This document shows positions 4,300 to 26,368 of a stretch of DNA of 64,000 bases, one piece after another; the stretch's first letter is position 1; the number at the start of each line of letters is the position of its first letter. The notes beneath the pieces were generated by a model. It saw only the letters and a list, made by a program, of their open reading frames with translations, was not told where the DNA came from and made no database searches. The stretch comes from Mesorhizobium sp. WSM3626 (lineage in GTDB: Bacteria; Pseudomonadota; Alphaproteobacteria; Rhizobiales; Rhizobiaceae), in assembly GCF_000513935.1 (NCBI RefSeq), contig NZ_AZUY01000003.1, forward strand, positions 167,466-231,465, written 5' to 3'. The translations under genes were made by a program, and so were the position numbers.

Positions 4300-5880
4300 T
4301 CAGGTGATTGGAGATGACCCCAGCGTCGCCACGGTCTTCAGCGCGCCGTCGAGCATATCGCCCTTCTCGTCCTTCAGCGCCGCCTCGCGCAGGCGGCGTA
4401 TCCAGTCGGCGGCATCGTCGCGGCCCTTGAGCAGGTCGAGAGCAGAGAGTACGCGGTCGAATTTCGACTGGGCGCGCACATGGGTGTCGCTGTAGCCTTT
4501 GATCAGCCGGCGGCAGTTGAGGATTTCGACGGCAACGGCATAGTCGACCGGCACGTAGCCAAGCGCCAGTGCGTACCAGCGATCGAGATGGGCAAGCTCG
4601 ACCTTATGGCGCAGCAGGCCGCGGCGCCAGCGCCGCAGGCCGCCGATGAGCCACAGGGCGGCAAAGCCGGCAAAACTGTCGGTGCGGATGCGGCGGCCAC
4701 GGTTGATGCGGCGGTCGAGAAACCCGGCGAGCTTGGGCCGGTTCTCTATGTAGCCGCCGAGCCCCGCCGGCAGCGTGCCGCAGAACTCCTCGATGCGGGG
4801 ATGGAAATATTCGGTCACCTGCAGGACCGAACCGTCCTTGACGCCAACCTCCTTGCGGACCCGCCTGTCGCGGGTCGAGCGCGTTTTCAGATCGGCGACG
4901 CGGATCACGTCGTCATAGCACATGGCATTGGCCAGATGCTTGGCGGCGGCGATGGACAGAACATGAGCGTGGCCGGCGCTGTCCAGCGCGACGGCCTTGT
5001 CCAGCCGGTCGAGATATTCGCGGCCATAGGCGATGTCCTGATAGTCGACGACCTTTCTCAGGCCGCGAAGCGCCATGTCGCGCACGGCCAGGGGCATCAG
5101 GTCGATGCGAGCAACCAGCGCCTGCCATCCCTGCAGCAGATTTTGCGGACCGCTCACGCGCCCGGTACCCTGGGCGGATTCGACAATCGCTGGCTCCGCC
5201 GGCTTTGACGAAGGTGCTGCCGCCAGGCCCCGCGCACGATCGAACGCCGCGCTAAAGGCGGCGAGGCTGGCCTTGACGCCACGGCCGCCGGTGCCGATCG
5301 CCTGTTCATAACTTTCACGGGTAAACGGCAGTGCGTCGGAGCCGGCCAGCGCGCCAAGCAGGCTGGCCGAGATCATCGAGCCGTTGTCGGCGGCGATCTT
5401 TTCCATGTCGAAAGCGATGAAGCGCTTCGACGCGGTTTCCGCCGTGGCGTGAACCTTGGACGACGAGGCGCGGCCGTCGCCCGGTTCGATCTTTTCCGCG
5501 ACGGCGGCGATGCGGTGCGAGGAGGCGATCAGCGTCGTGCGGTTGGGGGTGACGAACCCCCTGATGATCGCACGGCCGGCTTCCATCAATTCGGCGGCGA
5601 TCAAGATGTCGACATCGCCCTGCGAGGGCGACAGCGCGAAGACCGGCAGGCGGCCGGTGTCGCGGGCCATTTCGACATAGTAGATGGTGGCGCCGGTGCG
5701 CTGGGCGACGCCGGCGACCGAGGTCGATTGCGCGACATAGCCATTGCGCTCGGCGACATCGGTGATCCAGTCGGCCAGCACGCCGCCGCCCTGGCCGCCG
5801 ACGGCCAGCACCGCGAGCTTGATGACTTGCTCATCGGCAGCACCGGACCGGGGATGCAAGGAAGGAACAGGCTCAAGCAT
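4300..5880 (-). CDS. iorB: Indolepyruvate oxidoreductase subunit beta family protein (2-oxoacid:ferredoxin oxidoreductase)
   Basis: The 526-residue protein opens with the gamma-type fold of 2-oxoacid oxidoreductases (VGGQGGGVLADWI near residue 32, then SVAGVAQRTGAT). The second half is a long extension found in the large proteobacterial IorB type. With IorA it should oxidatively decarboxylate an aryl 2-oxoacid to an acyl-CoA, reducing ferredoxin. The ATG at 5880 overlaps the iorA stop by 8 bp, indicating translational coupling. A longer frame up to 5994 would run deep inside iorA and is unlikely. Classical IorAB uses indolepyruvate. The neighbourhood makes other aryl oxoacids such as 2-aminophenylglyoxylate possible (inference). 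Confidence 0.87.
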   Translation of the reverse strand: MLEPVPSLHPRSGAADEQVIKLAVLAVGGQGGGVLADWITDVAERNGYVAQSTSVAGVAQRTGATIYYVEMARDTGRLPVFALSPSQGDVDILIAAELMEAGRAIIRGFVTPNRTTLIASSHRIAAVAEKIEPGDGRASSSKVHATAETASKRFIAFDMEKIAADNGSMISASLLGALAGSDALPFTRESYEQAIGTGGRGVKASLAAFSAAFDRARGLAAAPSSKPAEPAIVESAQGTGRVSGPQNLLQGWQALVARIDLMPLAVRDMALRGLRKVVDYQDIAYGREYLDRLDKAVALDSAGHAHVLSIAAAKHLANAMCYDDVIRVADLKTRSTRDRRVRKEVGVKDGSVLQVTEYFHPRIEEFCGTLPAGLGGYIENRPKLAGFLDRRINRGRRIRTDSFAGFAALWLIGGLRRWRRGLLRHKVELAHLDRWYALALGYVPVDYAVAVEILNCRRLIKGYSDTHVRAQSKFDRVLSALDLLKGRDDAADWIRRLREAALKDEKGDMLDGALKTVATLGSSPIT

Positions 5881-8026
5881 CGGCGAATACCAGGCGCCGG
5901 CTTTCGCGCCGCCTCTGCAGCAAGCCGATCGTCGCGCGGCGCGTCGCTTCCAGGAAGCGGTCCCAGCGGCTTGGATTGTGCACGACATCGGCACGGTAGA
6001 AGGACGGGCAGAGCACGGCGGCGTCCGCCACCTCGCCGCAATTGCCGCAGCCGACGCAGTTCTGGTCGATCGATGCGACCGGATCGTCGCGCAGCGGATC
6101 GTCGAGCGATTTCACCGACAGCGACGGGCAGCCGGAGAGCCGCATGCAGGCGTGATCGCCGGTGCAGATGTCCTCGTCGACGCCGAACTTCGGCTTGACG
6201 ACCCTTGTCCCACCCTTGATCGCCTTGTCGACCAGCGGCCTTTCGCGGCGCTGGCGATTGAGCATGCACTCCGACGAAGCGACGATGACTTTTGGCCCCT
6301 TCTCGTCCGTCGTCAGCGCCTCGCGCAACGTGTCCTGCATCTTGCCGACATCATAGGTGCGGTCGACATGGCGCAGCCATTTGACGCCCATGCCTTTCAC
6401 CGCCTCGGTGATCGGATGCTTGGTCGACTTGGTCCTATTGCCGGCACGCGACGACAGTATGTCCTGCCCGCCGGTGGCTGCCGAATAAAAATTATCGACG
6501 ATGACGATGACGCCGTCATTCTTGTTGAACACCGCATTGCCGATCGAGGAGGTCAGGCCATTGTGCCAGAAGCCGCCGTCGCCGACGAAGGAGATCGAGC
6601 GGCGCTTGGCGTCGGGCGAATTGAACGCCGAGGCCGAGGCGGGCCCCAGCCCGTAGCCCATCGTGGTGGAGCCGAGCTCGAAAGGCGGCATGATCGAGAA
6701 CAAATGGCAACCGATATCGGAAGCGATGTGATGCTTGCCGAGTTCCTGCTCGACCAGTTTGGTCGCCGCGAAGATCGGCCGCTCGGGGCAACCGATGCAG
6801 AAGCCGGGCGGCCGGCCCGGCACGACGTTGACCAGATCCGCCGTGTCGACGCCGTCGCCGACCTTGTTGGGCGCGCGCACCTCGCCCGGCAAAAGATGCG
6901 GGGCTTCTGCGCGCAGGAAGGCGCCGATGCCGTCGAGCATGACCTGGCCAGTATATTCGCCGGCCATCGGCAGATGCTCCTTGCCGACCAGCCTGGTGCC
7001 GCGCCCCGCCTTGTGCAACATCGCGGCAAAGGCCTGCTCGATATAGTTGGGCTGGCCTTCCTCGACCACCAGCACCGCCTGCTTGCCCTCGCAAAAGGCG
7101 AGGAACTCGTCGTCGATCAGCGGATAGACGGCGTTGAGCACGTAGAGCGGCACATCCGTGTCGCCATAGGTGTCGGCAAGGCCGAGCCGCTGCAGTGCAC
7201 GGATGACCGAATTGTACATGCCGCCCTGCATGACGATGCCGACCGAGCCGTGGTCCGAGCCGAAGAACTCGTTGATCTTGTTCCTGGTGATGAAATCCAC
7301 CGCCGCCGGCCAGCGCTTTTGTACCTTCTCCTTCTCGTGCAGGAAGGAGGCGGGCGGCAGCACGATGCGTCCGGTGTCGCGGCGCGGCGCGTCGAGCGCA
7401 TCGGCCACCGTCATCGGCGGGCGCTTGTTGTCCTTGGCGATGAAATGGCCGTGCACGTGGCAGCAACGGATGCGCACCTGCAGCATGACCGGCGTGTTGG
7501 AGATTTCCGACAGCTCGAAACCATCCTCCACCGCCTTGACGATGGATGGCAGGTTGGGGCGCGGGTCGAGCAGCCAGACCTGGCTCTTCATGGCGAAGGC
7601 ATGGCTGCGCTCCTGCATGATGGAGGAGCCCTCGCCATAGTCCTCGCCGACGATGAGCAGCGCGCCGCCGGTGACGCCGCCGGACGCGAGATTGGCCAGC
7701 GCGTCGGAAGCGACATTGGTGCCGACGGTGGATTTGAAGGTCGCGGCACCACGGATCGGGTAATGCACCGAGGCGGCCAGCATGGCTGTGGCGGTAGCTT
7801 CCGAGGCGCTGGCCTCGAAATGCACGCCGAGCTCGCCCAGAATGTCCTGCGCATCGGCCAACACATCCATCAGATGGCTGATCGGCGCGCCCTGATAGCC
7901 GCCGACATAGCCGACGCCGCATTGCAGCAGCGCCTTGGTGATGGCGAGGATGCCTTCGCCGGCAAATTCCTCGCCGGCGCCGAGCCTCAGCTTTTCGACT
8001 TCCTTGGCAAAAGACCGTTCAGCCAT
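5873..8026 (-). CDS. iorA: Indolepyruvate ferredoxin oxidoreductase subunit alpha (TPP- and Fe-S-binding)
   Basis: The 717-residue protein has the pyrimidine-binding/core oxoacid oxidoreductase domain first (GGYQGAPISH near 43), then a TPP-binding domain with GDG at 482-484 and the paired N512. The C-terminal ferredoxin-like region has C621, C627, C633-P and a canonical cluster C657, C660, C663, C673-P. A CIGCPERP motif (410-413) is also typical. The first Fe-S motif is spaced unusually (C-x5-C-x5-CP). The start at 8026 has a strong ribosome site (GGAAGGAGG). It follows a marR gene by 44 bp in a minus-strand operon whose first gene is the cyclase at 11233. It forms the enzyme with iorB. Confidence 0.9.
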   Translation of the reverse strand: MAERSFAKEVEKLRLGAGEEFAGEGILAITKALLQCGVGYVGGYQGAPISHLMDVLADAQDILGELGVHFEASASEATATAMLAASVHYPIRGAATFKSTVGTNVASDALANLASGGVTGGALLIVGEDYGEGSSIMQERSHAFAMKSQVWLLDPRPNLPSIVKAVEDGFELSEISNTPVMLQVRIRCCHVHGHFIAKDNKRPPMTVADALDAPRRDTGRIVLPPASFLHEKEKVQKRWPAAVDFITRNKINEFFGSDHGSVGIVMQGGMYNSVIRALQRLGLADTYGDTDVPLYVLNAVYPLIDDEFLAFCEGKQAVLVVEEGQPNYIEQAFAAMLHKAGRGTRLVGKEHLPMAGEYTGQVMLDGIGAFLRAEAPHLLPGEVRAPNKVGDGVDTADLVNVVPGRPPGFCIGCPERPIFAATKLVEQELGKHHIASDIGCHLFSIMPPFELGSTTMGYGLGPASASAFNSPDAKRRSISFVGDGGFWHNGLTSSIGNAVFNKNDGVIVIVDNFYSAATGGQDILSSRAGNRTKSTKHPITEAVKGMGVKWLRHVDRTYDVGKMQDTLREALTTDEKGPKVIVASSECMLNRQRRERPLVDKAIKGGTRVVKPKFGVDEDICTGDHACMRLSGCPSLSVKSLDDPLRDDPVASIDQNCVGCGNCGEVADAAVLCPSFYRADVVHNPSRWDRFLEATRRATIGLLQRRRESRRLVFADA

Positions 8027-8070: not shown

Positions 8071-8553
8071 CTAGATGTCGTGCTTGCGAATGTTCTTCAG
8101 CATCTTCAAAAGCGTCGCGATAAGCGCTGCGTATTCGACGTCGTCGATATCGTCGAACATGGCCTCGAACGCATCGTGCATGGCCGGCCAGGCGCGGGTG
8201 AACTCGGCTCGGCCCTCGTCGGTCAGGAACACGTGGCGGATGCGGCTGTCGGTGACGCCCTGCTCGCGCCGCACGAACCCTTGCCCCTCCAGCGTGTCCA
8301 GCGTGCGGCTCAAGGTCGACTGCTCGATGACCGTATAGACCGAGAGGTCGTTGACGGTGACGCCGTCGGCGACCGACAGCACGGCGAGCGTGCGCACCTG
8401 CGAAATCGTCAGGCCCTGCCTGCGGAAATCATCCCGCAAGGTGGCGTTGTAGCGGCCCATGATGCGGTTCATCAGATAGGGCGCGAATTGCTGCAGGCCG
8501 ATCTGACCGAGGGTCGAAATGCGTTGGCGTTTTTCGGCGACCTTCTGTTCCAT
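8071..8553 (-). CDS. MarR family transcriptional regulator
   Basis: The 160-residue protein has a winged helix-turn-helix: TISQVRTLAVLSVADGVTVN, then QSTLSRTLDTLEGQGFV and the wing RREQGVTDSRIRHVFLTDEG. MarR proteins of aromatic catabolic clusters are commonly repressors released by CoA thioesters or aromatic ligands. The ATG at 8553 shares one base with the stop of the FAD oxidoreductase gene before it (TGATG), so the two are translationally coupled. It is a candidate reader of the YTTYAAGCWTRAAR sites; a second marR lies at 22143. Which of the two binds these sites cannot be told from sequence. Confidence 0.88.
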   Translation of the reverse strand: MEQKVAEKRQRISTLGQIGLQQFAPYLMNRIMGRYNATLRDDFRRQGLTISQVRTLAVLSVADGVTVNDLSVYTVIEQSTLSRTLDTLEGQGFVRREQGVTDSRIRHVFLTDEGRAEFTRAWPAMHDAFEAMFDDIDDVEYAALIATLLKMLKNIRKHDI

Positions 8554-10124
8554 CACAGTTTCCCCGCCAGCAGGAAACCCGAGCCGCCGCCGAGGCCGGC
8601 ACCGGGATGGGTCGAGGCACCGATATGGTAGAGCCCCTTGATGCCGGTCTGGTGGTTGCGGCTGGTCTTGAACGGCCGCCACAGGAACGACTGGTCGATA
8701 ACCGAGGAGCCGCCATAGGGGTCGCCGCCGACCAGGTTGATGTTCATCGTTTCGAGATCGGCCGGCGAATAGGCGCGGCGCGCGACGATGCTGTCCTTGA
8801 AGCCGTCGATATGGCTGGCGAGGATCGCTTCGGCGCGATCGGCATAGGCCTCGCGCAGCGCCTCGGTCCATTGCCCGTCAGCCGGTGCCTGCAGCTTGCC
8901 GGCGGCGTCGCCCTTGATGTGGCGCGGCGCCTCGGGCAGTTGCAGCCACAGGATCGCCTTGCCTTCCGGGCAGCGCGACGGGTCGAGCGCATGCGGCTGG
9001 CCGACACAGATGGTCGGCACTTCGGGCAGCATGCCGCGCGCCGCCTCGTTGCAGGCCTTCGACACGCCGTCCAGTCCAGGCGTCAGATGCAGCAGCGCCA
9101 CCTTGTCGAGGCCCTCGCCGCGCCAGGACGGCGGCTTGTCGAGGGCGTAGTGGATCTGGAAATTGCCTTTGCCATAGCGGTATTTCCGCGTCGCTTCGAC
9201 GTCGCCCTTCGGAGCGTCCTTGCCGAGCAGGCGGCCGTAAAGCTGCGTCGGCGTGACCGAGCAGATGACGCTCTTGGTGGCGTGAACCGTTTCGCCCGAG
9301 GCCAGCCGCACGCCCGTGGCGCGACCTCCGGCCAGGAGGATGGAGGCAACGTCCGCTTCGGTGGAAATGACGCCGCCGCGCTCCTTGATGAGCGCCTCGA
9401 AAGCCGACAGCAGGTTCTGCGCCCCGCCCCTGACGATCGGCGCGCCGGCCGCCTCCAGCGCGAAGGCGATCACCTTGGCGATCTGGCCGGAAAAGGCGTC
9501 TTCGGGGCCAAGCCCGGCATGCAGCACCCACGGCGCCCAGAGCGCGCGGACTGTCTCCGACTGATACGTGCCTTCCAGCCAGCTACGCGCCGGCACCAGG
9601 GCGTCGCCGAGAAAGGCGGCAAGCCCGCGCGGACCACGCCGCCAGGCATCGCCGGCCAGCAGCTTCGCGGTCGGGTACGACCACAGGCTACCGCCCAGCA
9701 GGCCGAACAGCAGGCCGGCGTTGCGCTCGATGCCGCCGACATCTTCCGCGTGGCGGTCGCCGTCGCCAGCAGCGATCCTGTTAAGCGCGGCGATGTTGGC
9801 GGCACGGTCGGTGGTGAGCACCGCGTGGCTGCCATCGGGCCGCAGCACTCCGGTCGGCGTGCCGGTATGGCAGAATTCCAGCCCGTGCCGGGCGAGATCG
9901 GCGCCCAGTGCGGAAAAGGCCGGAGAGGTGATGAACAGAACGAAAGTCGTCGCCATCACGTCGTGGATGAAGCCGGGCGCGGTGATCTCCTCGGTGCGCA
10001 TGCAGCCGCCGATGCGGTCGTTGCGCTCCAGCACGAGCACCTTGGCGCCCTTGCCGCCGAGCATCGCCGCGCAGACCAGCGCATTGATGCCGCTGCCGAC
10101 GATGATGTGATCCGGGGCGTTCAT
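8553..10124 (-). CDS. NAD(P)/FAD-dependent oxidoreductase, CrtI/PYROXD2-like
   Basis: The 523-residue protein starts with a Rossmann FAD motif (IIVGSGINALVCAAMLGGKG, residues 8-27, followed by the acid in VLVLERN) and ends with the flavin-contacting LYHIGASTHPGAGLGGGSG. The architecture is that of phytoene-desaturase-like amine/alkene oxidoreductases. No carotenoid genes are nearby, so carotenoid work is unlikely. A paralogue of almost the same length lies divergently at 11351, on the other side of the cyclase gene. In this cluster either could oxidise a pathway intermediate, but the substrate is unknown. It sits between the cyclase and marR in the minus-strand operon, with a palindromic repeat upstream. 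Confidence 0.8.
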   Translation of the reverse strand: MNAPDHIIVGSGINALVCAAMLGGKGAKVLVLERNDRIGGCMRTEEITAPGFIHDVMATTFVLFITSPAFSALGADLARHGLEFCHTGTPTGVLRPDGSHAVLTTDRAANIAALNRIAAGDGDRHAEDVGGIERNAGLLFGLLGGSLWSYPTAKLLAGDAWRRGPRGLAAFLGDALVPARSWLEGTYQSETVRALWAPWVLHAGLGPEDAFSGQIAKVIAFALEAAGAPIVRGGAQNLLSAFEALIKERGGVISTEADVASILLAGGRATGVRLASGETVHATKSVICSVTPTQLYGRLLGKDAPKGDVEATRKYRYGKGNFQIHYALDKPPSWRGEGLDKVALLHLTPGLDGVSKACNEAARGMLPEVPTICVGQPHALDPSRCPEGKAILWLQLPEAPRHIKGDAAGKLQAPADGQWTEALREAYADRAEAILASHIDGFKDSIVARRAYSPADLETMNINLVGGDPYGGSSVIDQSFLWRPFKTSRNHQTGIKGLYHIGASTHPGAGLGGGSGFLLAGKL

Positions 10125-10441: not shown

Positions 10442-11233
10442 CTATTTGCCCGCCACCAGCGCCAGGGCGCGGATCGGGCTGCCGGTGCCGTGCTCGATCT
10501 TGAGCGGGGCCGCGATCAGGATCGCGCCTTTCGGCGGCAGCTGGTCGAGATTGCAGAGACTGGCGAGGCCGTAGCGGTTGGCCTTGTGCATCAGCGTGTG
10601 CGCCGGGAATGGCGGCTCCATGCCGCCGGCCTTGCCGGCATCGGTGCCGATGGTCTCCGAGCCCCAGCCCTTGATGTCCTTGGTGATCAGGAACTGGATG
10701 GCTTCCGCCGTCGGGCCGGGCGTGTGCGGGCCGGTCTCGTTGGCATTGAGGAATTCGGCTTCCGAGCCGTTGCGCTTGTACCAGTCGGTGCGCATCACCA
10801 CCCACTCGCCGGCGTTGATCGCGCCATGCTTGGCTTCCCAGGCCTTGATGTGGTCGACGGTGAGCAGGAAATCGTGATCGGCGGCGGCTTCCTTCGAACA
10901 GTCGATGACATTGACCGGCCCGATGAAATTCTGCGCCGGAATGGTGTCGGTGGCGCCGTCCGGATAATCCTTGCCGGAGATCCAATGCTGCGGGGCGTCG
11001 AAATGCGTGCCGGAATGCTCGCCGAGCTTCAGCCAGTTCCACGCCCACCATGGACCGTTCTTGTCATAGCGGGAGATTGAGTGGATCTCGACCTTCGGCG
11101 TGTCGACGGCAAGTTCCGGCGGCAGCTTGATCAGCGGTGTGTCCGGCCCGAGCGGCGCCGTCAGGTCGACCACCTTGATGGCGCCGGAAAGAAGCTGGGC
11201 GGCGACTTCGCCGAGGAGTTTTTGGCTGTCCAT
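10442..11233 (-). CDS. Cyclase family metal-dependent hydrolase (KynB / isatin hydrolase-like)
   Basis: The 263-residue protein carries the family metal motif HSGTHFDAPQH (H73, H77, D79, H83), then HTPGPTAEA (170-178), IGTD (195-198) and HTLMHKANRYGLASL (212-226), in the order seen in KynB-type kynurenine formamidases and isatin hydrolases. These enzymes hydrolyse an amide/lactam with a bound divalent metal. KynB substrates belong to tryptophan breakdown. Isatin hydrolase opens isatin to isatinate. The company of iorAB and an aminobenzoyl-CoA monooxygenase makes the isatin option attractive, but this is inference. It is the first gene of the minus-strand operon and diverges from 11351 with an operator between. 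Confidence 0.82.
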   Translation of the reverse strand: MDSQKLLGEVAAQLLSGAIKVVDLTAPLGPDTPLIKLPPELAVDTPKVEIHSISRYDKNGPWWAWNWLKLGEHSGTHFDAPQHWISGKDYPDGATDTIPAQNFIGPVNVIDCSKEAAADHDFLLTVDHIKAWEAKHGAINAGEWVVMRTDWYKRNGSEAEFLNANETGPHTPGPTAEAIQFLITKDIKGWGSETIGTDAGKAGGMEPPFPAHTLMHKANRYGLASLCNLDQLPPKGAILIAAPLKIEHGTGSPIRALALVAGK

Positions 11234-11350: not shown

Positions 11351-12924
11351 GTGAGCGAGTTCGACGCCATCTTTGTCGGGGCGGGCCACAACACTCTGGC
11401 ATGCGCCGCGCATCTGGCGCTCAAGGGCTGGAAAACCGGGGTTTTCGAACGCGGCGCAACAATCGGCGGCGCCGTCCAGACCCGCGAATTCACCCTCCCC
11501 GGCTTCCGCCACGATTTCGGCGCGATGAATCTGAGCCTGTTCGCCGGCTCGGCGTTCCATCGGAAATATGCAAATGAATTGAAAGCGCAGGGGCTGGAAT
11601 TCGCCCCGGTCGCCGACTGTTTCGCCAGCGCCTTTCCGGATGGACGCTGGTTCGGGGTCAGCAACGATCTGGAAAAGACCGCCGGCCGCATGGCTGCCTT
11701 TTCGGCCGCCGATGCCGCGACATGGCGCAGGCTGGTTGCCGCCTTCCCGGCCGAAGCCGAGCATTTGTTCAAGCTGCTGGGCTCGCCGATGAGCGCCCGG
11801 GCGCTTGCGGGCACCGCATGGAACCTGTGGCGCAAGAAGGGTGTATCGGGCGCGCTCGACACCGGCCGGCTGCTGTTGTCTTCGCCGCGTGCCTGGCTGG
11901 AGGAAAATTTCGAGTCTCCACACATCAGGGCGACGCTCGCCACCTGGGGCATGCATCTCGACTTCGCGCCCGACACCGCCGGCGGTGCCGTGTTTCCCTA
12001 TCTGGAATCGATGGCCAACCAGAGTTTTGGCATGGTGCTGGGCAAGGGCGGCGCCGATACGATCATCCGGGCACTGGCCGGCATGGTGACATCCGCCGGC
12101 GGCAGGATCGTCACCGGCGCCGAGGTGACCGAGATCACGGTCTCCGGCGGCAAGGCGACAGGTGTGCGGCTTGTTTCCGGCGAAACGCATACGGCCACCA
12201 GGGCGGTGATTGCAGGCGTGGCGCCCAAGGCGCTGTCCGGCAAGCTGCTGCCCGGCGGTTCCGGCGACGCCGGCTTCGACATGGCGATGCAGAAGTTTCG
12301 ACATGCGCCGGGCACGATGATGATCCACCTGGCGCTGGACGATCTGCCGGACTGGCGCGCCGGGGCAGAGTTGCGCCAGTTCGCCTATGTGCATCTGGCG
12401 CCGTCGCTCGACCAGATGTCGCGCACCTATCAGCAGGCGGTGGCAGGCATGCTGCCGGACGAACCGGTGCTGGTCGTCGGCCAGCCGACCGCGGTCGATC
12501 CGTCGCGTGCGCCCGCGGGCAAACATGTTCTGTGGGTGCAGGTGCGCATGCTGCCCGCCGAAATCGTGGGCGACGCCTCGGCCAAGATCGCGCCAGCGCA
12601 TTGGGACGAGGTCAAGGATGCCTATGCCGACCGCGTGCTCGACATCATCGAAACCCACGCGCCTGGCCTGCGCGCAAAATCCTCGATCGCGCGGTGTTTT
12701 CGCCCATCGATCTCGAGCGCGAGAACCCGAACCTCGTCGGTGGAGACCAGCTCTGCGGCAGCCATCATCTGGCGCAGAATTTCCTGTTCCGTCCGGCGCG
12801 CGGCTATGCCGGCTGGAACACGCCGGTAACCAATCTGCATCTCACCGGCGCCGCGACATGGCCCGGTGCCGGCATGGGTGCCGCCTCGGGCTTCATGCTC
12901 GCGCAACAGCTTGGCGGGAGATAG
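11351..12924 (+). pseudogene. FAD-dependent oxidoreductase, CrtI/PYROXD2-like, broken by a -1 frameshift
   Basis: The frame from GTG 11351 carries the FAD motif (FVGAGHNTLACAAHLALKG) and runs in frame 2 to about 12675. The family C-terminus (VFSPIDLERENPNLVGG, then LTGAATWPGAGMGAASGFML) continues in frame 1 to TAG 12922-12924. One extra A in the AAAA run at 12676-12679 would join both parts into about 524 residues, almost the length of the 523-residue paralogue at 8553, which shares NLVGGD and the final GAGxGxxSGFxLA block. The gene is therefore a recent pseudogene, a sequencing error or a slippage-read gene. The uncorrected frame ends at 12829 with a nonsense tail. It heads the plus-strand arm, just ahead of the ABC importer. 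Confidence 0.75.
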
Positions 12925-14558: not shown

Positions 14559-14571
14559 GACAGACGCCAAG

Positions 14572-19084: not shown

Positions 19085-21379
19085 ATGAAGGTTGCGGTTC
19101 TCGGCGGCGGACCAGCCGGCCTCTACTTTGCCATTTCGATGAAGCTGAGAGACGCCGCGCACGACGTGACGGTTTTCGAGCGCAATCGCGCCGACGACAC
19201 GTTCGGCTGGGGCGTCGTGCTGTCGGCCGAGACGCTCGATAATCTTGCGAAGAACGATCCTGTCAGCGCCGTCTGGATCAAGAAGCATTTTGCCTATTGG
19301 GACGACATCGCCGTCATCCATGACGGCGTGCGCACGGTCTCGTCAGGCCACGGCTTCTGCGGCATCGGCCGCAAGCGGCTGTTGATCCTGCTGCAGCGCC
19401 GCGCGCGCGAACTCAGCGTCAAGCTGATGTTCGAAACCGACATCGCCGACCCAAAACCCTATATGGAAACGCATGACCTGGTCGTCGCCGCCGACGGGTT
19501 GAACTCCAGGGCGCGCAACAGCTTCATCGATATCTTCAAGCCCGACATCGATACGCGCAAATGCAAGTTCGTCTGGCTCGGCACCAACCAGAAATTCGAC
19601 GACGCCTTCACCTTTATCTTCGAGAAGACCGAGCATGGCTGGGTGTGGGCGCACGCCTATCAGTTCGACAGCGATACCGCGACCTTCATCGTCGAGTGCA
19701 GCGAACAGACCTGGGCCGACTTCGGCTTCGGCGCGATGTCGCAGCAGGAGTCCATCGCGGTGTGCGAGCGCATCTTTGCCAAACATCTTGGCGACCACGC
19801 GCTGATGACCAACGCCAACCACATCAGGGGCTCGGCCTGGATCAATTTCCCGCGCGTGCTTTGCGAGCGCTGGTCCTACAGGAATCTGGCGCTGATGGGC
19901 GACGCCGCGGCCTCGGCGCATTTCTCGATCGGCTCCGGCACCAAACTCGCCTTGGAGAGTGCGGTGGCGCTGGCCGACTATGTCGAGACCGAGCCGGACC
20001 TCGAGGCCGCCTTCCGCAAATATGAGGACGCCCGCCGCACCGAAGTGCTGAAGCTGCAGTCGGCGGCGCGCAATTCTCTGGAATGGTTCGAGGAGGTCGA
20101 GCGCTATCTCGGCCTCGATCCGGTGCAGTTCAACTATTCGCTTTTGACCCGTTCGCAACGCATCAGCCACGAGAATCTGCGGCTGCGCGATGCCGAGTGG
20201 CTGGGCGGCGCGGAAGAGTGGTTCCAGCGGCAGGCCGGTGCCGGCGGCGATAGGCTGCGCCGGGCGCCGATGTTCGCGCCCTTCAAGCTGCGCGACATGG
20301 TGCTCAACAACCGCGTCGTCGTTTCGCCGATGGCGCAGTACAAGGCCGTCGACGGCCGCCCGACCGACTGGCATTTCACCCATTATGCCGAGCGGGCGAA
20401 GGGCGGTGCGGGACTCGTCTATATCGAGATGACCTGCGTCAGCCCGGAAGGGCGCATCACGCCCGGCTGCCCCGGCTTCTACGCGCCCGAACATGAGGTG
20501 GCGTGGAAGCGACTGGTCGATTTCGTCCATACCGAAACCGAAGCGAAGATCTGTGCCCAGATCGGCCATTCCGGCGCCAAGGGTTCGACCCGCGTCGGTT
20601 GGGAAGGCACCGACGTGCCGCTGGCCTCGGGCAACTGGCCTGTCATGGCGGCATCGGCCGTCGCCTGGTCGCCTGAGAACCAGGTGCCGAAGGCGATGGA
20701 CCGCGCCGACATGGATTTGGTGCGCGATCAATTCGTGGCCTCGGCCGAAATGGCCGATCGCTGCTGCTTCGACATGCTCGAGATCCACGCCGCGCACGGC
20801 TATCTCTTGTCGTCGTTCATCACGCCGGTCACCAACCAGCGCACGGACGCCTATGGCGGCTCACTGGAAAACCGCATGCGTTATCCCCTGGAAATCTTCC
20901 ACGCGGTGCGCGCCGCCTGGCCCGCGGAAAAACCGATCTCGATGCGCATTTCGGCCAATGACTGGGTCGGCATCGAAGGCGTGACGCCGGCGGACGCCGT
21001 CGAGATCGCGCGGATGCTGCACGAGGCCGGCGTCGACATTTGCGATGTTTCGGCCGGCCAGACGTCGGTTGCCGCCAAGCCGGTCTATGGTCGCATGTTC
21101 CAGACGCCGTTCTCCGACCGTATCCGCAACGAGGTCGGCATGGCGACGATGGCGGTCGGCAACATCTACGAGCCCGACCATGTCAATTCGATCCTGATGG
21201 CCGGCCGCGCCGATCTGGTGGCGCTGGCACGGCCGCATCTCGCCGATCCCTACTGGATGCTGCATGCGGCGGTGACGCTCGGCGACCGTGGCGTCAAATG
21301 GCCGGATCCCTATCTGCCCGGGCGCGATCAGCTCTACCGGCTGGCCGAGCGTGACGCCGCTGCGGGGCTGAAAGTATGA
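19085..21379 (+). CDS. 2-Aminobenzoyl-CoA monooxygenase/reductase (bifunctional salicylyl-CoA 5-hydroxylase-like)
   Basis: The 764-residue protein fuses two flavoproteins. Residues 1 to about 380 are an FAD aromatic hydroxylase (GGGPAG at 7-12; [22 protein letters not shown]). From about 398 there is an old-yellow-enzyme FMN reductase ([50 protein letters not shown]). The fusion is characteristic of enzymes that hydroxylate and then reduce 2-aminobenzoyl-CoA, or hydroxylate salicylyl-CoA. It dearomatises the ring for beta-oxidation-like cleavage. It heads a tightly overlapping set with SDR, MarR and enoyl-CoA hydratase, and a MarR-type operator lies just upstream. Confidence 0.9.
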
Positions 21380-22149
21380 CGGCCGCGACAACGATTCCCG
21401 GCAAGCACGCGCTGGTCACCGGCGGCGGATCCGGCGTCGGCCGGGCCATCGCGCTCACTTTGGCCGCGGCTGGTATCGACGTGACCATTTGTGGGCGCAG
21501 CGAAGCTGAGCTCACCAAGGTTGCCGGCGAAAACGGCCGCATCCATGGCATCGTCGCAGACGTCACCAGCGAGGCGGCGATGGCGGCGCTTTACGAGATG
21601 GCGGAGGCCGCGCGCGGACCATTCAACATCGTCGTTGCCAATGCCGGCATGGCCGGCAGCACGCCGGCGCACAAGACCACGCTTGCCGACTGGCAGCGAA
21701 CGCTCGACGTCAATCTGACCGGGGCGTTCCTGACGGTGAGACCGGCGCTGGCCGGCATGGCCGCGCGCAAGGCAGGCCGCATCGTCTTCATCGCCTCCAC
21801 CGCCGGATTGAAAGGCTATCCCTATGTTGCGCCTTATGTGGCGGCCAAACATGGCGTCGTCGGCCTGATGCGGGCGCTGGCCGCAGAGACGGCGAAATCC
21901 GGCGTCACCGTCAATGCGGTGTGTCCGGGCTTCGTCGAGACCGACATGTTGGAGGAATCCATCCAGCGCATCGTCGAAAAGACCGGCCGCTCGGCCGGCG
22001 AGGCGCGAGCCAGCCTCGTCTCGACCAACCCGCAAGGCCGCTTCATCCAGCCGCAAGAAATTGCCGAAGCCGTGCTGTGGTTGTGCGGCGACGCGGCGGC
22101 GTCGATCACCGGACAGGCGATTTCGATCTCGGGAGGTGAAACATGGTAG
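21376..22149 (+). CDS. SDR family NAD(P)-dependent oxidoreductase
   Basis: The 257-residue classical short-chain dehydrogenase has the [13 protein letters not shown] cofactor motif (about residues 15-27), NAG in VVANAGMAG, catalytic Ser in IVFIASTAG and the YVAAK catalytic pair, then [12 protein letters not shown]. It probably works as the 3-hydroxyacyl-CoA dehydrogenase step of the pathway (inference from position). Start and stop overlap its neighbours (ATGA with the monooxygenase stop, 7 bp with marR). Confidence 0.9.
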
Positions 22150-22613
22150 CCGGCCCCCTGCCCGTGCCATCGGGACCCGGCAAGGACCGGTTGCGTCTTT
22201 GGATAAGGCTGCTGCGGGCTTCACGCACGATCGAGGCCGAATTGCGCGAGCGCCTGAAGAAGGAATTCGACACGACGCTGCCGCGTTTCGACGTCATGGC
22301 AGCGCTTTACCGGGCGCCGGAAGGCATGCTGATGAGCGACCTGTCGCGCTTCCTGCTGGTGTCCAACGGCAATGTCACCGGCATTGTCGACCGGCTGGTG
22401 TCGGAAGGACTTGTCGCCCGGGCCCGCCGCAATGGCGACCGCCGTACCTCGATGGTGCGGTTGACCGAGGAAGGCACGAAGTCCTTTGCCACCATCGCCG
22501 CGGCGCATGAGGGCTGGATCGGCGAATTGCTGGGCAAGGTCAGCGAGGAGGATGCGCACCGACTGACCGGCATGCTGACCTCGTTCCGCAGCAACTGGGA
22601 GGGACGCGAATGA
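22143..22613 (+). CDS. MarR family transcriptional regulator (second in the island)
   Basis: The 156-residue winged-helix protein has [20 protein letters not shown], the recognition-helix region [20 protein letters not shown] and the wing [18 protein letters not shown]. It lies inside the catabolic transcript between SDR and enoyl-CoA hydratase, overlapping both genes, so its level would track pathway expression. Regulators embedded this way are often repressors that sense a CoA-thioester intermediate. It is the other candidate for the YTTYAAGCWTRAAR sites. Confidence 0.88.
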
Positions 22614-23422
22614 CTGCAATGGCCGGCCTCAAGCCGAAGCATTTCCTGTGGGAAGTCGAGGGCCGGATCGCCAGGGTCCGGCTCGACCGGCCGGAGCGCA
22701 AGAACCCGCTGACCTTCGATAGCTATGCCGAGCTGCGCGACACGTTCCGCGATCTCGTCTATGCCGAGGACGTCGACGCCGTGGTGTTCCTCTCCAATGG
22801 CGGCAATTTCTGCTCCGGCGGCGATGTCCACGACATCATCGGTCCGCTGGTCAAGATGGACATGAAGCAGCTCTTGGCCTTCACCCGCATGACCGGCGAT
22901 TTCGTCAAGGCAATGCTCAACTGCGGCAAGCCGATCATCGCGGCGGTGGACGGCGTGGCGGTTGGCGCCGGCGCCATCATCGCCATGAGCGCCGACATCC
23001 GCATCGCCACGCCGGAAGCCAAGACCGCCTTCCTGTTCACCCGCGTCGGCCTTGCCGGCTGCGACATGGGCGCCTGCGCGATCCTGCCGCGCATCATCGG
23101 CCAGGGCCGCGCCGCCGAACTGCTTTACACGGGCCGAACCATGACGGCTACGGAAGGCGAGCGCTGGGGATTCTACAACAGGCTGGTCGATGCGGCGGCT
23201 CTGGAGACCGACGCGCTGGAGATGGCGGCCCGCATCGTCTCCGGCCCGACCTTCGCCCACGGCATCACCAAGACGCAGCTCAACCAGGAATGGTCGATGG
23301 GCCTCGACCAGGCGATCGAGGCCGAGGCGCAGGCGCAGGCTATCTGCATGCAGACGCGCGATTTCGAGCGGGCGTATCTGGCTTTCGTGGCCAAGGAAAA
23401 GCCGGTGTTCGAGGGGAATTGA
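22610..23422 (+). CDS. Enoyl-CoA hydratase/isomerase family protein
   Basis: The 270-residue crotonase-fold protein has oxyanion-hole segments [17 protein letters not shown] (near residue 60) and [22 protein letters not shown] (near 110), and a [18 protein letters not shown] stretch where catalytic residues of hydratases usually lie. The typical second Glu (GLxPE) position reads GCDMGA, so hydratase chemistry is not certain. A ring-opening hydrolase or isomerase is also possible. It overlaps the marR stop by 4 bp (ATGA). Confidence 0.85.
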
Positions 23423-23443: not shown

Positions 23444-23603
23444 GCACCCCCCTCTGGCCTGCCGGCCATCTCCCCCGCAAGGGGGGAGATCAGCTGATTG
23501 CGTCGCTTTCGCCAATCGCCAGCGTTGCAAGATGGGCGGGAAGATTGAAGCTGCCAATCTCCCCCCTTGCGGGGGAGATGCCCGGCAGGGCAGAGGGGGG
23601 TGC
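23444..23603. repeat. 160-bp RIME-like palindromic element (copy 2)
   Basis: The 47-bp inverted arms are at 23444-23490 and 23557-23603, with the same arm length and 66-bp spacer as the copy at 10181-10340 and closely similar sequence. It fills the gap between the enoyl-CoA hydratase and acyl-CoA dehydrogenase genes. Confidence 0.85.
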
Positions 23604-23635
23604 AACGGATCGCGACCAAGATCAAGGGCGCATCC

Positions 23636-24784
23636 ATGCCTGACCGTTCCTTCCTCAACTGGCCGTTCTTCGAGGACCGGCATCGCGAGCTCGCCGAGCA
23701 CCTGGACACTTGGTGCGCCAAAAACCTTCCCGTCGACCATCATGACGTCGACGCCGCCTGCCGCGAGCTGGTGGACAAGCTCGGCAAGGATGGCTGGCTG
23801 AAGCCGACGGCGCTCGATACCGACAATCCTGGACCGCTCGACGTACGCACCTTGTGCATCACGCGCGAGACGCTGGCTCGCCACGATGGGTTGGCCGACT
23901 TCGCCTTTGCCATGCAGGGGCTGGGCACCGGTGCACTCAGCCTGTTCGGGGCGCCTGACCAGCAGCAATGGCTTTCGAAGACCCGCGCCGGCAAGGCGAT
24001 CTCAGCGTTTGCCCTGTCAGAACCGCGCTCTGGCTCGGATGTCGCCAATACCGAAATGACGGCGACCCGCGATGGCGACGGCTACGTTCTCACGGGCGAA
24101 AAAACCTGGATCTCCAATGGCGGCATCGCCGACCTTTATGTCGTCTTTGCCCGCACCGGAGAAGCACCGGGTGCCAAGGGGCTTTCCGCCTTCCTGGTGC
24201 CGGGCGACGCCAAGGGGCTCGGTATTGCCGAACGGCTGGAAGTGATCGCGCCGCATCCGCTGGCGCGGCTTTCGTTCGACCAGGTCCGGCTGCCTGCCTC
24301 GGCGCTGATCGGCAAGCCGGGCGACGGCTTCCGCATCGCCATGTCGGTGCTCGACGTATTCCGCTCGACGGTCGGCGCGGCGGCGCTCGGCTTTGCCCGC
24401 CGCGCGCTCGATGAAAGCATCAAGCGCGTGGCCGAGCGCAAACTGTTCGGCGCACCGATGGCCGAGTTGCAGATGGTGCAGGGCCATATCGCCGACATGG
24501 CGCTCGACGTCGATGCGGCGGCCCTTCTGGTCTATCGCGCCGCCTGGACCAAGGACATGGGCGCGGCGCGAGTGACGCGCGAGGCGGCGATGGCCAAGCT
24601 GTTCGCCACCGACAAGGCGCAGGAGGTGATCGACAAAGCGGTGCAACTGCATGGCGGCGACGGTGTCCGCAAAGGCCACATCGTCGAGAGCCTGTACCGC
24701 GAAATCCGCGCGCTGCGCATCTATGAGGGCGCATCGGACGTGCAGAAGGTGGTGATCGCGCGGCAAGTGATGGGCGCGGCCTGA
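23636..24784 (+). CDS. Acyl-CoA dehydrogenase family protein
   Basis: The 382-residue flavoprotein has [23 protein letters not shown] and [21 protein letters not shown] in the FAD/substrate-binding middle domain, [41 protein letters not shown] near the C-terminus, and Glu in YEGAS at the catalytic-base position. It likely oxidises a cyclic or dicarboxylic acyl-CoA intermediate. The start at 23636 is chosen because the upstream extension to 23567 lies in the palindromic repeat. The ribosome site is poor, so the repeat may affect its translation. Confidence 0.9.
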
Positions 24785-24857
24785 ACAGGTCGCATTGATA
24801 GGATTGCTTTGAGACACGGATATTGCGGACCCGATATTGGAAAGGCGGAGAGACGAC

Positions 24858-25253
24858 ATGCACGAGATCCTGCAGCCGGAAGGCTGGGCAAAACCGGTCG
24901 GCTACGCCAACGGCGTGGCGGCGCGCGGCAGGCTCGTTTTCGTCGGCGGACAGGTCGGCTGGAACGGGCAATGTCAGTTCGAGACCGACGATTTCGCCGG
25001 CCAGGTGCGGCAGACGCTCCAGAACATCGTCGCGGTGCTGGCCGAGGCCGGCGCGGAGCCACGGCACATCACCTCGATGACCTGGTATTTCACCGACAAG
25101 GCCGAATATCTCGGTAACCTCAAGGGGATCGGCGAGGCTTATCGCGAGGTGATCGGCCGGCATTTTCCGGCGATGGCCGCCATGCAGGTGGTGGCGCTGG
25201 TGGAGGACCGCGCCAAGGTGGAGATCCAGGCGACCGCCGTCGTTCCGGAATAA
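24858..25253 (+). CDS. RidA family (YjgF/YER057c/UK114) protein
   Basis: The 131-residue protein has the RidA core: GRLVFVGGQVGWNG near residue 24, QTLQNIVAVLAEAGAEPRHITSMTWYFTDK and MAAMQVVALVEDRAKVEIQATAVV. The arginine usual for imine hydrolysis is shifted or replaced in this copy (LVEDRAKVEIQA), so it may belong to a non-archetypal Rid subgroup. RidA-type genes accompany aminobenzoyl-CoA clusters, where removal of an enamine/imine nitrogen is needed after ring reduction. The ATG at 24858 follows GGCGGAGAG. The frame could start at TTG 24837. Confidence 0.87.
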   Translation: MHEILQPEGWAKPVGYANGVAARGRLVFVGGQVGWNGQCQFETDDFAGQVRQTLQNIVAVLAEAGAEPRHITSMTWYFTDKAEYLGNLKGIGEAYREVIGRHFPAMAAMQVVALVEDRAKVEIQATAVVPE

Positions 25254-25276: not shown

Positions 25277-26368
25277 TTATTCGCGAAGCCCAGCCTGCCT
25301 CAGCAACGGCAGCACGTGGTCGCAAAAATAGGGCAATTCCCTGGTGTAGTTGACGAAGGATAGCGCAATGCCCTGGTAGCCGTGCGCGGCAATGGCGGCC
25401 ATCTCGGCGGCAATCGTCTCCGGCGTTCCAACCAGCGGATAGGTGCCGGCGCCGCCGGCGAAACGCTGGCGATAGCGCTCATAGGCATGCGGGTCGTGCG
25501 ATTGCGAGAATTCCTTCTTGCCGGCCATATGCGCATCGACCGCCTCGTGGTCGGCCAGATCGACGGCATAGCGTGTGTAGTAGGCCTGCGCCTCTTCCAT
25601 GGTCGGGCGGCAGACGACATGGGCCACGGTGTAGACGCCGACCTCCCGGCCAACCTTGTCGGCCCGTTCGCCGATGTCGGCGACATGCTTGCCGGCATCG
25701 CCCATCTCGGAAAAGGTCGTGAACAGATAATCGCATCTGGCGGCGGCGAAATCGCGGCCCGGGCCGCCGAAAGCGGCGTTCATGGTCACCGGGCGCGGAA
25801 CCTGCAGGCTGGCCGGCCGGCTGACCGCCTCCTTGAGGTGATAATAGGTCCCTTCATAGTCGAGCGGCTCCGCCGATGCGTAGAGCTTCTCCAGAATCTC
25901 GATCCATTCGACCGCCTGGTCGTAACCCTTCTCGACCAGCGGCGTGCCGAACATGCCGAATTCCTTCGGGTTCCAGCCGCAGACGATGTTGAGGCCGGCA
26001 CGGCCCTGGCTGATGTGGTCGACCGTCGCCAGCGCCTTGGCGGCATAGAGCGGGTGCACCAGCGGCACATGCACGGTCATGAACAGGCCGATGCGGTCGG
26101 TGGCCATGCTGAGCGCCGCCGCCCAGGTGAAGGTCTCGAACGACCGCTCGCGCACCTTGTTGCGGCCGCCAAAGCCGCGCCAGCGGGCGATCGGCAGCAG
26201 GAACTCCAGCCCGGCGCGGTCGGCGATCTGGGCTGCCGTCAGATTGTCCTGCCAGCTTGCCGTCCAGCGCTCCGGCACATCCGATATGGCAAGGCCGCCA
26301 TCGGCATTGGTCGAGAAGACGCCAAGCTTCAGTTTGTTGGAGCCGTGCAACGGATGTGCCTTGTTCAT
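25277..26368 (-). CDS. LLM class flavin-dependent oxidoreductase (luciferase-like monooxygenase)
   Basis: The 363-residue TIM-barrel flavoprotein starts KLKLGVFSTNADGGLAIS, with GLEFLLPIARWRGFGG, the RIGLFMTVHVPLVHPLYAAKALATVDHISQGR block and NIVCGWNPKEFGMFG. These match the RutA/alkanesulfonate-monooxygenase-like group, which uses reduced FMN and oxygen to cleave C-N or C-S bonds. The start at 26368 has GGGAGG ahead of it. The longer frame to 26491 crosses the divergent promoter. It diverges from the aldolase gene with an operator between. A role in nitrogen-containing ring chemistry fits but is unproven. Confidence 0.88.
   Translation of the reverse strand: MNKAHPLHGSNKLKLGVFSTNADGGLAISDVPERWTASWQDNLTAAQIADRAGLEFLLPIARWRGFGGRNKVRERSFETFTWAAALSMATDRIGLFMTVHVPLVHPLYAAKALATVDHISQGRAGLNIVCGWNPKEFGMFGTPLVEKGYDQAVEWIEILEKLYASAEPLDYEGTYYHLKEAVSRPASLQVPRPVTMNAAFGGPGRDFAAARCDYLFTTFSEMGDAGKHVADIGERADKVGREVGVYTVAHVVCRPTMEEAQAYYTRYAVDLADHEAVDAHMAGKKEFSQSHDPHAYERYRQRFAGGAGTYPLVGTPETIAAEMAAIAAHGYQGIALSFVNYTRELPYFCDHVLPLLRQAGLRE

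What the first reader, a model, noticed from the sequence alone, without database searches (positions are those of the whole stretch)
4300..26368. Candidate ligase-free isatin/isatinate to 2-aminobenzoyl-CoA pathway
The island joins a KynB/isatin-hydrolase-like cyclase (10442), IorAB (4300-8026) and a 2-aminobenzoyl-CoA monooxygenase/reductase (19085) with SDR, hydratase, acyl-CoA dehydrogenase and RidA, but holds no aminobenzoate-CoA ligase. Isatinate is 2-aminophenylglyoxylate, a 2-oxoacid. An IOR-family enzyme acting on it would directly give 2-aminobenzoyl-CoA, the substrate of the monooxygenase. This would link indole or indole-acetate breakdown to CoA-dependent ring reduction without passing through free anthranilate. 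I cannot say whether this has been described.
Basis: inference. Interest (0 to 1): 0.88.

Follow-up and report, generated by a model that had tools for sequence, protein, structure and literature searches.

The report
Ligase-free isatin to aminobenzoyl-CoA route
A gene island conserved in Mesorhizobium places a close homologue of isatin hydrolase beside relatives of a 2-oxoacid oxidoreductase and of a CoA-dependent aromatic-degradation module, and it is predicted to turn isatin, an indole breakdown product, directly into 2-aminobenzoyl-CoA without an ATP-spending ligase, which would give a likely job to the unassigned iadAB genes of bacterial auxin degradation.

Summary
The island is real. Its 'cyclase' is an isatin hydrolase homologue (431 bits to isatin hydrolase B, 31 to kynurenine formamidase). 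Its IorA belongs to one clade of 30 in a 76-row tree that holds all 20 hydrolase-linked rows. In an even draw of 387 alphaproteobacteria, the 6 hydrolases at 55% identity or more all lie within 10 kb of iorB; the reverse holds less well (6 of 14 genomes with this IorA clade have the hydrolase). The third module is the 2-aminobenzoyl-CoA (abm) module: 43 of 76 such loci carry the matching ligase. The island has none, but the genome does: an ortholog (ABL) sits on contig C52 with tryptophan 2,3-dioxygenase and kynureninase. Of 30 genomes with hydrolase, this kind of IorAB and the monooxygenase, 5 lack ABL; one (G664) holds all three in about 8 kb. G624 is the mirror image: hydrolase, monooxygenase and ABL, no IorAB. 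IorAB probably converts isatinate to 2-aminobenzoyl-CoA; the chemistry is inferred, not shown. An indole-acetate origin is not supported here: no iad-type dioxygenase was found. iadAB are known markers of auxin (iad) loci; the passages I saw give them no step.

The parts
4300..5994 (-). IorB-like subunit: POR gamma domain + DUF6537 (NF006179); the true start is probably inside the listed ORF, which overlaps iorA by 122 bases
   Evidence: 703.6 bits to NF006179, cut-off 348
5873..8026 (-). IorA-like subunit: thiamine-diphosphate domain and 4Fe-4S cysteines
   Evidence: GDG...DN and CxxCxxC invariant in 12 aligned relatives; motif names recalled
8071..8871 (-). MarR-family regulator (real start probably nearer 8550, inferred from the overlap with FAD1); second-best solved relative is the B. 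japonicum MarR 7kym, listed among IadR/IacR structures
   Evidence: 3cjn 146 bits, 7kym 81 bits
8553..10124 (-). FAD1, CrtI/CrtO-like FAD oxidoreductase; possible maker of isatin from an imported precursor (inferred)
   Evidence: in 64 of 64 full-length loci
10442..11233 (-). isatin hydrolase homologue
   Evidence: 431 bits over residues 1-260 to 4j0n isatin hydrolase B; (PF04199)
11351..12829 (+). FAD2, second CrtI/CrtO-like FAD oxidoreductase, divergent from isatin hydrolase
13029..18263 (+). peptide/opine-type ABC transporter (binding protein 13029-14558, permeases 14712-15719 and 15685-16479, ATPases 16235-17434 and 17427-18263)
18089..18943 (+). VOC (glyoxalase-fold) protein; the conserved domain begins near 18440
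   Evidence: in 57 of 64 full-length loci
19085..21379 (+). ACMR: FAD monooxygenase fused to an old-yellow-enzyme reductase; NCBIfam name is salicylyl-CoA 5-hydroxylase, context says 2-aminobenzoyl-CoA monooxygenase/reductase
   Evidence: (1249.8 bits, cut-off 1078)
21376..22149 (+). SDR dehydrogenase of the abm module
22143..22613 (+). second MarR-family regulator
22610..23422 (+). enoyl-CoA hydratase family (NF006107)
23567..24784 (+). acyl-CoA dehydrogenase
24837..25253 (+). RidA-family enamine/imine deaminase, inferred to act on the enamine product of ACMR

Best explanation
The island is likely a route in which an isatin hydrolase homologue would open isatin to isatinate and the IorAB pair, predicted to work as a CoA-acylating 2-oxoacid oxidoreductase, would convert isatinate (2-aminophenylglyoxylate) straight to 2-aminobenzoyl-CoA, CO2 and reduced acceptor, which the neighbouring module likely hydroxylates, reduces, deaminates and degrades by beta-oxidation. 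Shown: the genes, their families, their order, their conservation, and the IorA clade that holds the hydrolase-linked loci. Inferred: IorAB's substrate and product, its electron acceptor, the supply of isatin by the transporter and the two FAD oxidoreductases, and RidA's role. In this genome the same CoA pool is probably also fed by a ligase beside the tryptophan/kynurenine genes on contig C52, so two inputs would run in parallel: ATP-spending for anthranilate, ATP-free and electron-yielding for isatin.
For: (1) Hydrolase identity: 431 bits to 4j0n, 302-319 bits to three other isatin hydrolase sequences, 31 bits to kynurenine formamidase. (2) Class draw of 387 genomes: the 6 hydrolases at 55% identity or more all lie within 10 kb of iorB. 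Plasmids: the 27 records at 60% identity or more all hold iorB within about 6 kb (four named genera and one unnamed Paracoccaceae; 18 of 27 are Sulfitobacter). (3) Tree of 76 IorA: all 20 hydrolase-linked rows in one 30-row clade, SH-aLRT 100, none among the other 46. (4) Phylum draw: of 26 further hydrolase genomes, 24 have an IorA at 64-97% identity, 18 of the 24 within 12 kb of the hydrolase and 21 within 35 kb; 25 of 26 have ACMR. (5) No ABL in 5 of 30 genomes with all three (G170, G430, G642, G664, G595); G664 has iorA-iorB-hydrolase facing ACMR-RidA-acyl-CoA dehydrogenase-hydratase; G170 has iad-type genes, hydrolase, IorAB and the abm module in 17 kb. (6) Mirror case G624: ABL, hydrolase and ACMR adjacent, no IorA at E<=1e-100. 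(7) ABL (47% identity or more) lies in 43 of 76 ACMR loci, in 0 of the 5 with IorA nearby (Fisher p 0.013). (8) B. japonicum iorB and iorA rise 7.64- and 30.70-fold with IAA (PMC3788728, passages; whether they belong to this clade was not tested); iorAB are exclusive markers of iad operons (PMC9613470, passages).
Against: No activity is shown. NCBIfam's IOR-alpha equivalog cut-off is missed (270 of 650.9 bits), so the name gives no substrate. 25 of the 30 genomes also have ABL, this one included. Alloyangia has ABL in the same island. Of the 14 class-draw genomes with clade IorA only 6 have the hydrolase (E<=1e-40). Co-presence of ACMR is not special to the clade: 11 of 14 clade genomes have it, but so do 31 of 48 other genomes with IorB over the cut-off. 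27 of 76 ACMR loci have neither ABL nor IorA nor kynureninase nearby. The 7 class-draw genomes with a 49-54% hydrolase match have only IorAB outside the clade, on other contigs. In Variovorax a nine-gene set without iadAB restores anthranilate (PMC12633357, section 5).
Confidence: 0.67

Rival explanations
1. Isatinate is turned to free anthranilate (decarboxylation to 2-aminobenzaldehyde and oxidation, or an unknown enzyme), and the C52 ligase makes 2-aminobenzoyl-CoA for the island's module; IorAB serves another substrate.
For: ABL is present in 25 of 30 genomes with the three modules, including this one; in G624 ABL, hydrolase and ACMR are adjacent without IorAB; Variovorax makes anthranilate with a nine-gene set that lacks iadAB, and C7H7NO and C8H7NO3 are detected on the way (PMC12633357, section 5).
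Against: Five genomes with all three modules lack ABL; iorAB stays near the hydrolase across families; ABL in this genome sits with tryptophan 2,3-dioxygenase and kynureninase, not with the isatin genes.
Confidence: 0.17
2. IorAB oxidises indolepyruvate or another 2-oxoacid, and sits beside isatin hydrolase only because both serve indole metabolism.
For: Family name and distant similarity to indolepyruvate oxidoreductases; 8 of 14 class-draw genomes with clade IorA have no hydrolase match; IorAB outside the clade occurs in other contexts.
Against: Indolepyruvate oxidation would give indoleacetyl-CoA, for which the island shows no evident follow-up enzyme (inference); hydrolase-linked IorA all fall in one clade; in Caballeronia and G376 (clade members) and G595 (64% identical IorA) iorAB lies next to ACMR with no ligase in the stretch read, though G376 has ABL on another contig.
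Confidence: 0.1
3. The isatin operon and the abm module are neighbours by chance; the isatin arm ends elsewhere, for example with a thioesterase releasing anthranilate, while the abm module serves the kynurenine route.
For: Some clade loci have IorAB plus a thioesterase and no ACMR in about 25 kb (Shinella, Ruegeria, Sagittula); the Sulfitobacter and Tritonibacter loci have no ACMR in the 36.8 kb read.
Against: 63 of 64 full-length Mesorhizobium-type loci keep both, and IorAB and ACMR recur together in different gene orders in Alloyangia, strain La 6, Azospirillum, Caballeronia, Novosphingobium, G170, G664, G595 and G573. An IorAB-plus-thioesterase arm would still run through 2-aminobenzoyl-CoA.
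Confidence: 0.06

Closest known systems
2-aminobenzoyl-CoA (abm) pathway of Azoarcus evansii
   Same: Same kind of monooxygenase/reductase followed by beta-oxidation genes; the review gives ligase, monooxygenase/reductase, beta-oxidation (PMC4539516, passages).
   Different: There 2-aminobenzoyl-CoA comes from anthranilate by an AMP-forming ligase; here the island has no ligase and IorAB is the predicted source.
iad auxin-degradation loci (Variovorax, Achromobacter, Bradyrhizobium)
   Same: iadA/iadB are IorA/IorB; iadI is annotated as a kynurenine formamidase; a MarR regulator; intermediates isatin and isatinic acid (PMC9613470 passages, PMC12633357 one section and passages).
   Different: This island lacks iadCDE and the acyl-CoA synthetase/thiolase genes; two FAD oxidoreductases and a peptide-type transporter stand in their place. 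The iad papers end at free anthranilate and, in what I saw, give iadAB no step.
iaa anaerobic IAA pathway of Aromatoleum
   Same: Reaches 2-aminobenzoyl-CoA from an indole compound (PMC9613470, passage).
   Different: By recall it forms the CoA ester early and releases 2-aminobenzoyl-CoA by thiolysis; no isatin hydrolase or IorAB step.
Phenylglyoxylate:acceptor oxidoreductase (recalled)
   Same: Same chemistry: an arylglyoxylate plus CoA to an aroyl-CoA plus CO2.
   Different: Recalled as a five-subunit enzyme; here a two-subunit IorAB with DUF6537. No sequence comparison was made.

Membership tests
Isatin hydrolase | Closest solved relatives are isatin hydrolases, not kynurenine formamidases | tested here: met
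   431, 319, 318, 302 bits versus 31 bits
Isatin hydrolase | HxGTHxDxPxH metal-binding motif (motif recalled) | tested here: met
   alignment: HSGTHFDAPQH aligned to HSGTHFDAPHH of 4j0n
Isatin hydrolase | Hydrolysis of isatin | not testable with these tools
   needs protein
2-oxoacid:acceptor oxidoreductase (IOR-like, NF006179) | Thiamine-diphosphate domain in the alpha subunit, POR gamma domain in the beta subunit | tested here: met
   NF006179 703.6 bits, cut-off 348
2-oxoacid:acceptor oxidoreductase (IOR-like, NF006179) | Iron-sulfur cysteines kept | tested here: met
   C410/C413 and C657/C660/C663/C673 invariant in 12 rows
Indolepyruvate ferredoxin oxidoreductase (TIGR03336 / TIGR03334 equivalogs) | Score over the curated cut-off | tested here: not met
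   270.3 of 650.9 and 42.2 of 205.8 bits
abm (2-aminobenzoyl-CoA) pathway | Monooxygenase/old-yellow-enzyme fusion with SDR, hydratase, acyl-CoA dehydrogenase, RidA | tested here: met
abm (2-aminobenzoyl-CoA) pathway | 2-aminobenzoate-CoA ligase in the cluster | tested here: not met
   none in the window; ortholog on contig C52
Salicylyl-CoA 5-hydroxylase | NF006101 cut-off | tested here: met
   1249.8 bits; but the same family is linked to ABL in 43 of 76 loci, 5 of them with kynureninase, so the name does not settle the substrate
iad auxin locus | iadDE Rieske dioxygenase | tested here: not met
   three Rieske alpha genes in the genome; two hit iadD at 27-30% identity over about 200 residues, the third gave no hit over 70 bits
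iad auxin locus | iadA/iadB (IorA/IorB) genes | tested here: met
   that iadA/B are IorA/B is from PMC9613470; Variovorax/Bradyrhizobium sequences were not compared
Phenylglyoxylate:acceptor oxidoreductase | Subunit make-up and sequence relation (recalled) | not tested
   no reference sequence fetched

The most novel reading that the evidence does not exclude
The hydrolase-linked, DUF6537-containing IorAB is an isatinate dehydrogenase (2-aminophenylglyoxylate:acceptor oxidoreductase, CoA-acylating). It is the unassigned iadAB step of bacterial auxin degradation and a general ATP-saving entry that turns indole, auxin and related compounds into 2-aminobenzoyl-CoA, exchanged in evolution with the aminobenzoate-CoA ligase.
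Probability: 0.57. Interest if true: 0.82.

Novelty: new variant of a known kind. Interest (0 to 1): 0.72.

Why it matters
The step from isatinate onward in aerobic indole and auxin breakdown has no assigned enzyme in the papers I saw, although iadAB are marker genes of auxin-degrading loci and the B. japonicum iorAB are strongly induced by IAA. If IorAB does this step, the pathway's real product is 2-aminobenzoyl-CoA, and the anthranilate seen in cultures would be a by-product or the work of a thioesterase. Knockouts of iorAB and of the ligase can decide it.

Tried and rejected
KynB reading of the cyclase: rejected. Salicylyl-CoA reading of the monooxygenase: set aside because ABL, and in 5 loci kynureninase, accompany the family. 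'No ligase in the genome': rejected. A kynureninase reading of the aminotransferase at 29463: rejected, cysteine-desulfurase-like. The tally '13 of 13 hydrolase genomes have IorB' (p 1.5e-11) is not used as main evidence, because 7 of the 13 have IorAB only outside the clade; the genome-level tally of ACMR in hydrolase genomes (12 of 13, p 2.8e-8) is weak for the reason given under evidence against. A PDB search with an IorA profile gave no useful template. No structure prediction and no homologous-protein search was run. The tree is a quick search with SH-aLRT support only; hydrolase linkage was judged within the stretch held for each locus, which varies (about 8 to 41 kb); rows not extracted were L157 and L163. 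ACMR census: fragmentary matches of G245, G006, G381:C15, G164, G319, G178 and G096 were left out; ABL was first counted at 200 bits or more (45 of 76), and two of these at 32-36% identity were then dropped (43); the window's IorA, 11 kb from ACMR, lay outside its trimmed stretch and was counted by hand as the fifth IorA-linked locus. For the 26 phylum-draw genomes the ABL cut-off was E<=1e-130; for the 16 others 1e-60. The 30 genomes are 6 of the class draw (placed by tree) and 24 of the phylum draw (IorA identity 64% or more, no tree); G000 and G131 came up in both draws and are counted once. 'Other IorB genomes' (48) include a few whose IorA was not in the tree.
Full report
What is there. 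The window is a stretch of contig C19 of a 6.28 Mb genome, Mesorhizobium-like by its nearest relatives. Its first 25 kb hold a minus-strand row iorB (4300-5994), iorA (5873-8026), a MarR gene (8071-8871), a CrtI-like FAD oxidoreductase (8553-10124) and a cyclase-fold gene (10442-11233); a divergent plus-strand row of a second CrtI-like FAD oxidoreductase (11351-12829), a peptide/opine-type ABC transporter (13029-18263) and a VOC protein; then a fused FAD monooxygenase/old-yellow-enzyme (19085-21379), SDR, MarR, enoyl-CoA hydratase, acyl-CoA dehydrogenase and RidA (to 25253).

Isatin hydrolase. The cyclase matches the isatin hydrolase B chain 4j0n (Labrenzia, recalled) with 431 bits over residues 1-260, and three other isatin hydrolase sequences with 302-319 bits; the best kynurenine formamidase scores 31 bits. 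The metal motif is kept. This gene is the only PF04199 match in its genome at E<=0.001.

IorAB. IorB matches NF006179 at 703.6 bits (cut-off 348), with a POR gamma domain and DUF6537. IorA misses the indolepyruvate equivalog cut-off by far (270 of 650.9 bits), so the name does not give the substrate. The thiamine-diphosphate motif and iron-sulfur cysteines are invariant among 12 aligned relatives. A second, larger IOR-like frame on contig C63 is hit at 59.6 bits.

Co-occurrence. In an even draw of 387 alphaproteobacterial genomes, hydrolase matches (E<=1e-40) occur in 13, split IorB over cut-off in 62, ACMR (E<=1e-150) in 79. All 13 have an IorB and 12 have ACMR, but the telling split is by identity: the 6 hydrolases at 55% or more lie within 10 kb of iorB, while the 7 at 49-54% are on other contigs and their genomes' IorA fall outside the clade described next. 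The reverse is weaker: of 14 draw genomes with clade IorA, 6 have the hydrolase and 11 have ACMR; of 48 other genomes with IorB, 31 have ACMR, so co-presence of ACMR alone is not special. On plasmids, the 27 records with a hydrolase at 60% identity or more all hold iorB within about 6 kb (one across the start of a circular record); 18 of the 27 are Sulfitobacter, and the set is four named genera and one unnamed Paracoccaceae. In a draw of 397 genomes of the phylum, 28 have a hydrolase (E<=1e-60); of the 26 not tested before, 24 have IorA (E<=1e-100), 25 ACMR (E<=1e-150) and 21 ABL (E<=1e-130). Hydrolase-IorA distance is at most 12 kb in 18 of 24 and at most 35 kb in 21; IorA-ACMR at most 12 kb in 7 of 24 and at most 35 kb in 17; 8 of the 26 genomes are of the window's own genus.

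Tree. IorA from 76 loci falls into one clade of 30 rows (SH-aLRT 100) that holds all 20 hydrolase-linked rows (four of them the window and its nearest relatives); none of the 46 others is linked. Ten clade rows have no hydrolase at the locus. Two of them (L131, L190) have ACMR next to IorAB; for L190 the Azospirillum thermophilum hydrolase lies on another plasmid record with the neighbouring accession. The other eight are unexplained or carry other genes; seven of these and L131 come from genomes without any hydrolase match.

Which module follows. 76 ACMR loci of the class draw were read in stretches of up to about 10 kb each side. An ortholog of the window genome's C52 ligase (ABL, 47% identity or more) is present in 43, five of them with kynureninase; 27 have no ABL match at 200 bits, IorA or kynureninase. 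The link ties the family to 2-aminobenzoyl-CoA, as in the Azoarcus evansii pathway (PMC4539516, passages), in spite of the NCBIfam name salicylyl-CoA 5-hydroxylase. None of the four loci with IorA in range has ABL; with the window counted, 0 of 5 against 43 of 71, Fisher p 0.013. Two of these five (L172, L174) carry kynureninase and an IorA outside the clade, so they do not speak for isatin.

The ligase. The window has none, but the genome has ABL at C52:63775-65385, beside tryptophan 2,3-dioxygenase (428.7 bits, cut-off 390.7) and kynureninase (390.6 bits, cut-off 246.4). It likely serves anthranilate from tryptophan. In Alloyangia pacifica an ABL ortholog lies in the same island as hydrolase, IorAB, ACMR and a styrene/indole monooxygenase (annotated whole in one strain, broken in the other record). 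Of 30 genomes with hydrolase, clade-type IorAB and ACMR (6 of the class draw, 24 of the phylum draw), 25 have ABL and 5 do not: G170 (92% complete), G430, G642, G664 and G595 (listed at 100%). In these five the best match to the benzoate-CoA ligase family is 270.5 bits (G430), against 363 bits for the true ABL of G624; true ABLs also stay under that family's cut-off. Contig gaps remain possible.

Natural experiments. G664 has iorA, iorB and hydrolase on one strand facing ACMR, RidA, acyl-CoA dehydrogenase and hydratase on the other, inside about 10 kb, and no ABL. G170 has an acyl-CoA synthetase/thiolase/SDR/Rieske set like iad, then hydrolase, iorA, iorB, RidA, acyl-CoA dehydrogenase, hydratase, MarR, SDR and ACMR in 17 kb, and no ABL. 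Azospirillum thermophilum has iorAB, Rieske genes, an iadF-like AMP-binding gene and the abm module on one strand. In Caballeronia and G595 the order is iorA, iorB, thioesterase, ACMR. G624 is the mirror image: ABL, hydrolase and ACMR together and no IorA. The simplest reading is that IorAB and ABL are exchangeable suppliers of one compound.

Upstream. The feeding modules differ: iad-type genes (L090, L128, L132, L190), a StyA-like monooxygenase (L088, L134) or the two FAD oxidoreductases with the transporter (window, L088, L089, L093, L125, L133, L134); other loci in the same scan showed only parts of these sets or none of them. The window genome has the third kind; its Rieske alpha genes are not iadD-like. 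The isatin source here is unknown, and an indole-acetate origin is unsupported.

Literature. iorAB are described as exclusive markers of iad operons, and IadR binds ahead of iadA (PMC9613470, passages). iorB and iorA of B. japonicum are induced 7.64- and 30.70-fold by IAA (PMC3788728, passages). A 2025 preprint assigns steps to iadC-K2, ends at anthranilate, and its main text holds neither 'iadA' nor 'iadB' (PMC12633357, section 5 and passages). Searches for isatinate, isatinic acid and 2-aminophenylglyoxylate, isatin with indolepyruvate, isatin hydrolase with ferredoxin oxidoreductase (25 of 260 listed), 2-aminobenzoyl-CoA or isatinate, aminobenzoyl-CoA with isatin or indoleacetate (15 of 18 listed) and phenylglyoxylate with indolepyruvate (15 of 21 listed) showed no title or abstract start that states this step; only open-licence papers are held, and most listed papers were not opened.

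Verdict. The isatinate-to-2-aminobenzoyl-CoA step by IorAB is the best explanation, at 0.67, with the ligase present elsewhere as a parallel input. On checking I lowered this from 0.70, and the novel case from 0.60 to 0.57, because only 6 of 14 clade genomes have the hydrolase and ACMR co-presence is common among all IorB genomes. Activity remains to be shown.

Noticed in passing
G000 contig C52, L001:7042-10955: Tryptophan 2,3-dioxygenase, kynureninase and the aminobenzoate-CoA ligase ortholog lie together, a likely tryptophan-to-2-aminobenzoyl-CoA gene set feeding the island's module.
   Followed up: partly
window 10181-10340: A 61-nt inverted repeat (92% complementary, 38 nt between the arms) sits between the isatin hydrolase gene and the FAD1 gene; it looks like a mosaic intergenic repeat (recalled idea).
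   Followed up: partly
L005 (contig C19 upstream of the window): An integrase-like and a tape-measure-like frame suggest a prophage about 6-14 kb upstream of the window (read by eye from translations).
   Followed up: no
L189 (Variovorax boronicumulans plasmid): An IorAB outside the clade sits with an alpha-hydroxy acid oxidase and an enolase-superfamily gene, suggesting mandelate to phenylglyoxylate to benzoyl-CoA; other NF006179 IorAB may also act on arylglyoxylates.
   Followed up: no
L131 (G376 contig C94): Clade IorAB next to ACMR and several FAD monooxygenase-like frames, with no isatin hydrolase in the genome at E<=1e-40: another source of the 2-oxoacid is likely.
   Followed up: no
L185, L186, L187: IorAB followed by a thioesterase and two MarR genes, near fumarylacetoacetate-hydrolase-family, cupin and carbon-nitrogen hydrolase genes, with a racemase gene in all or most: perhaps a gentisate-type continuation with free acid release.
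   Followed up: no
window 498-3980: A 1160-aa fusion of transporter (MFS), acyltransferase and AMP-binding domains, lipid-type, not an aromatic ligase.
   Followed up: no
window 25277-27266: A luciferase-like flavin monooxygenase ORF on the minus strand overlaps by 20 bases the start of an HpcH/HpaI aldolase ORF on the plus strand; their part in the pathway is unknown.
   Followed up: no
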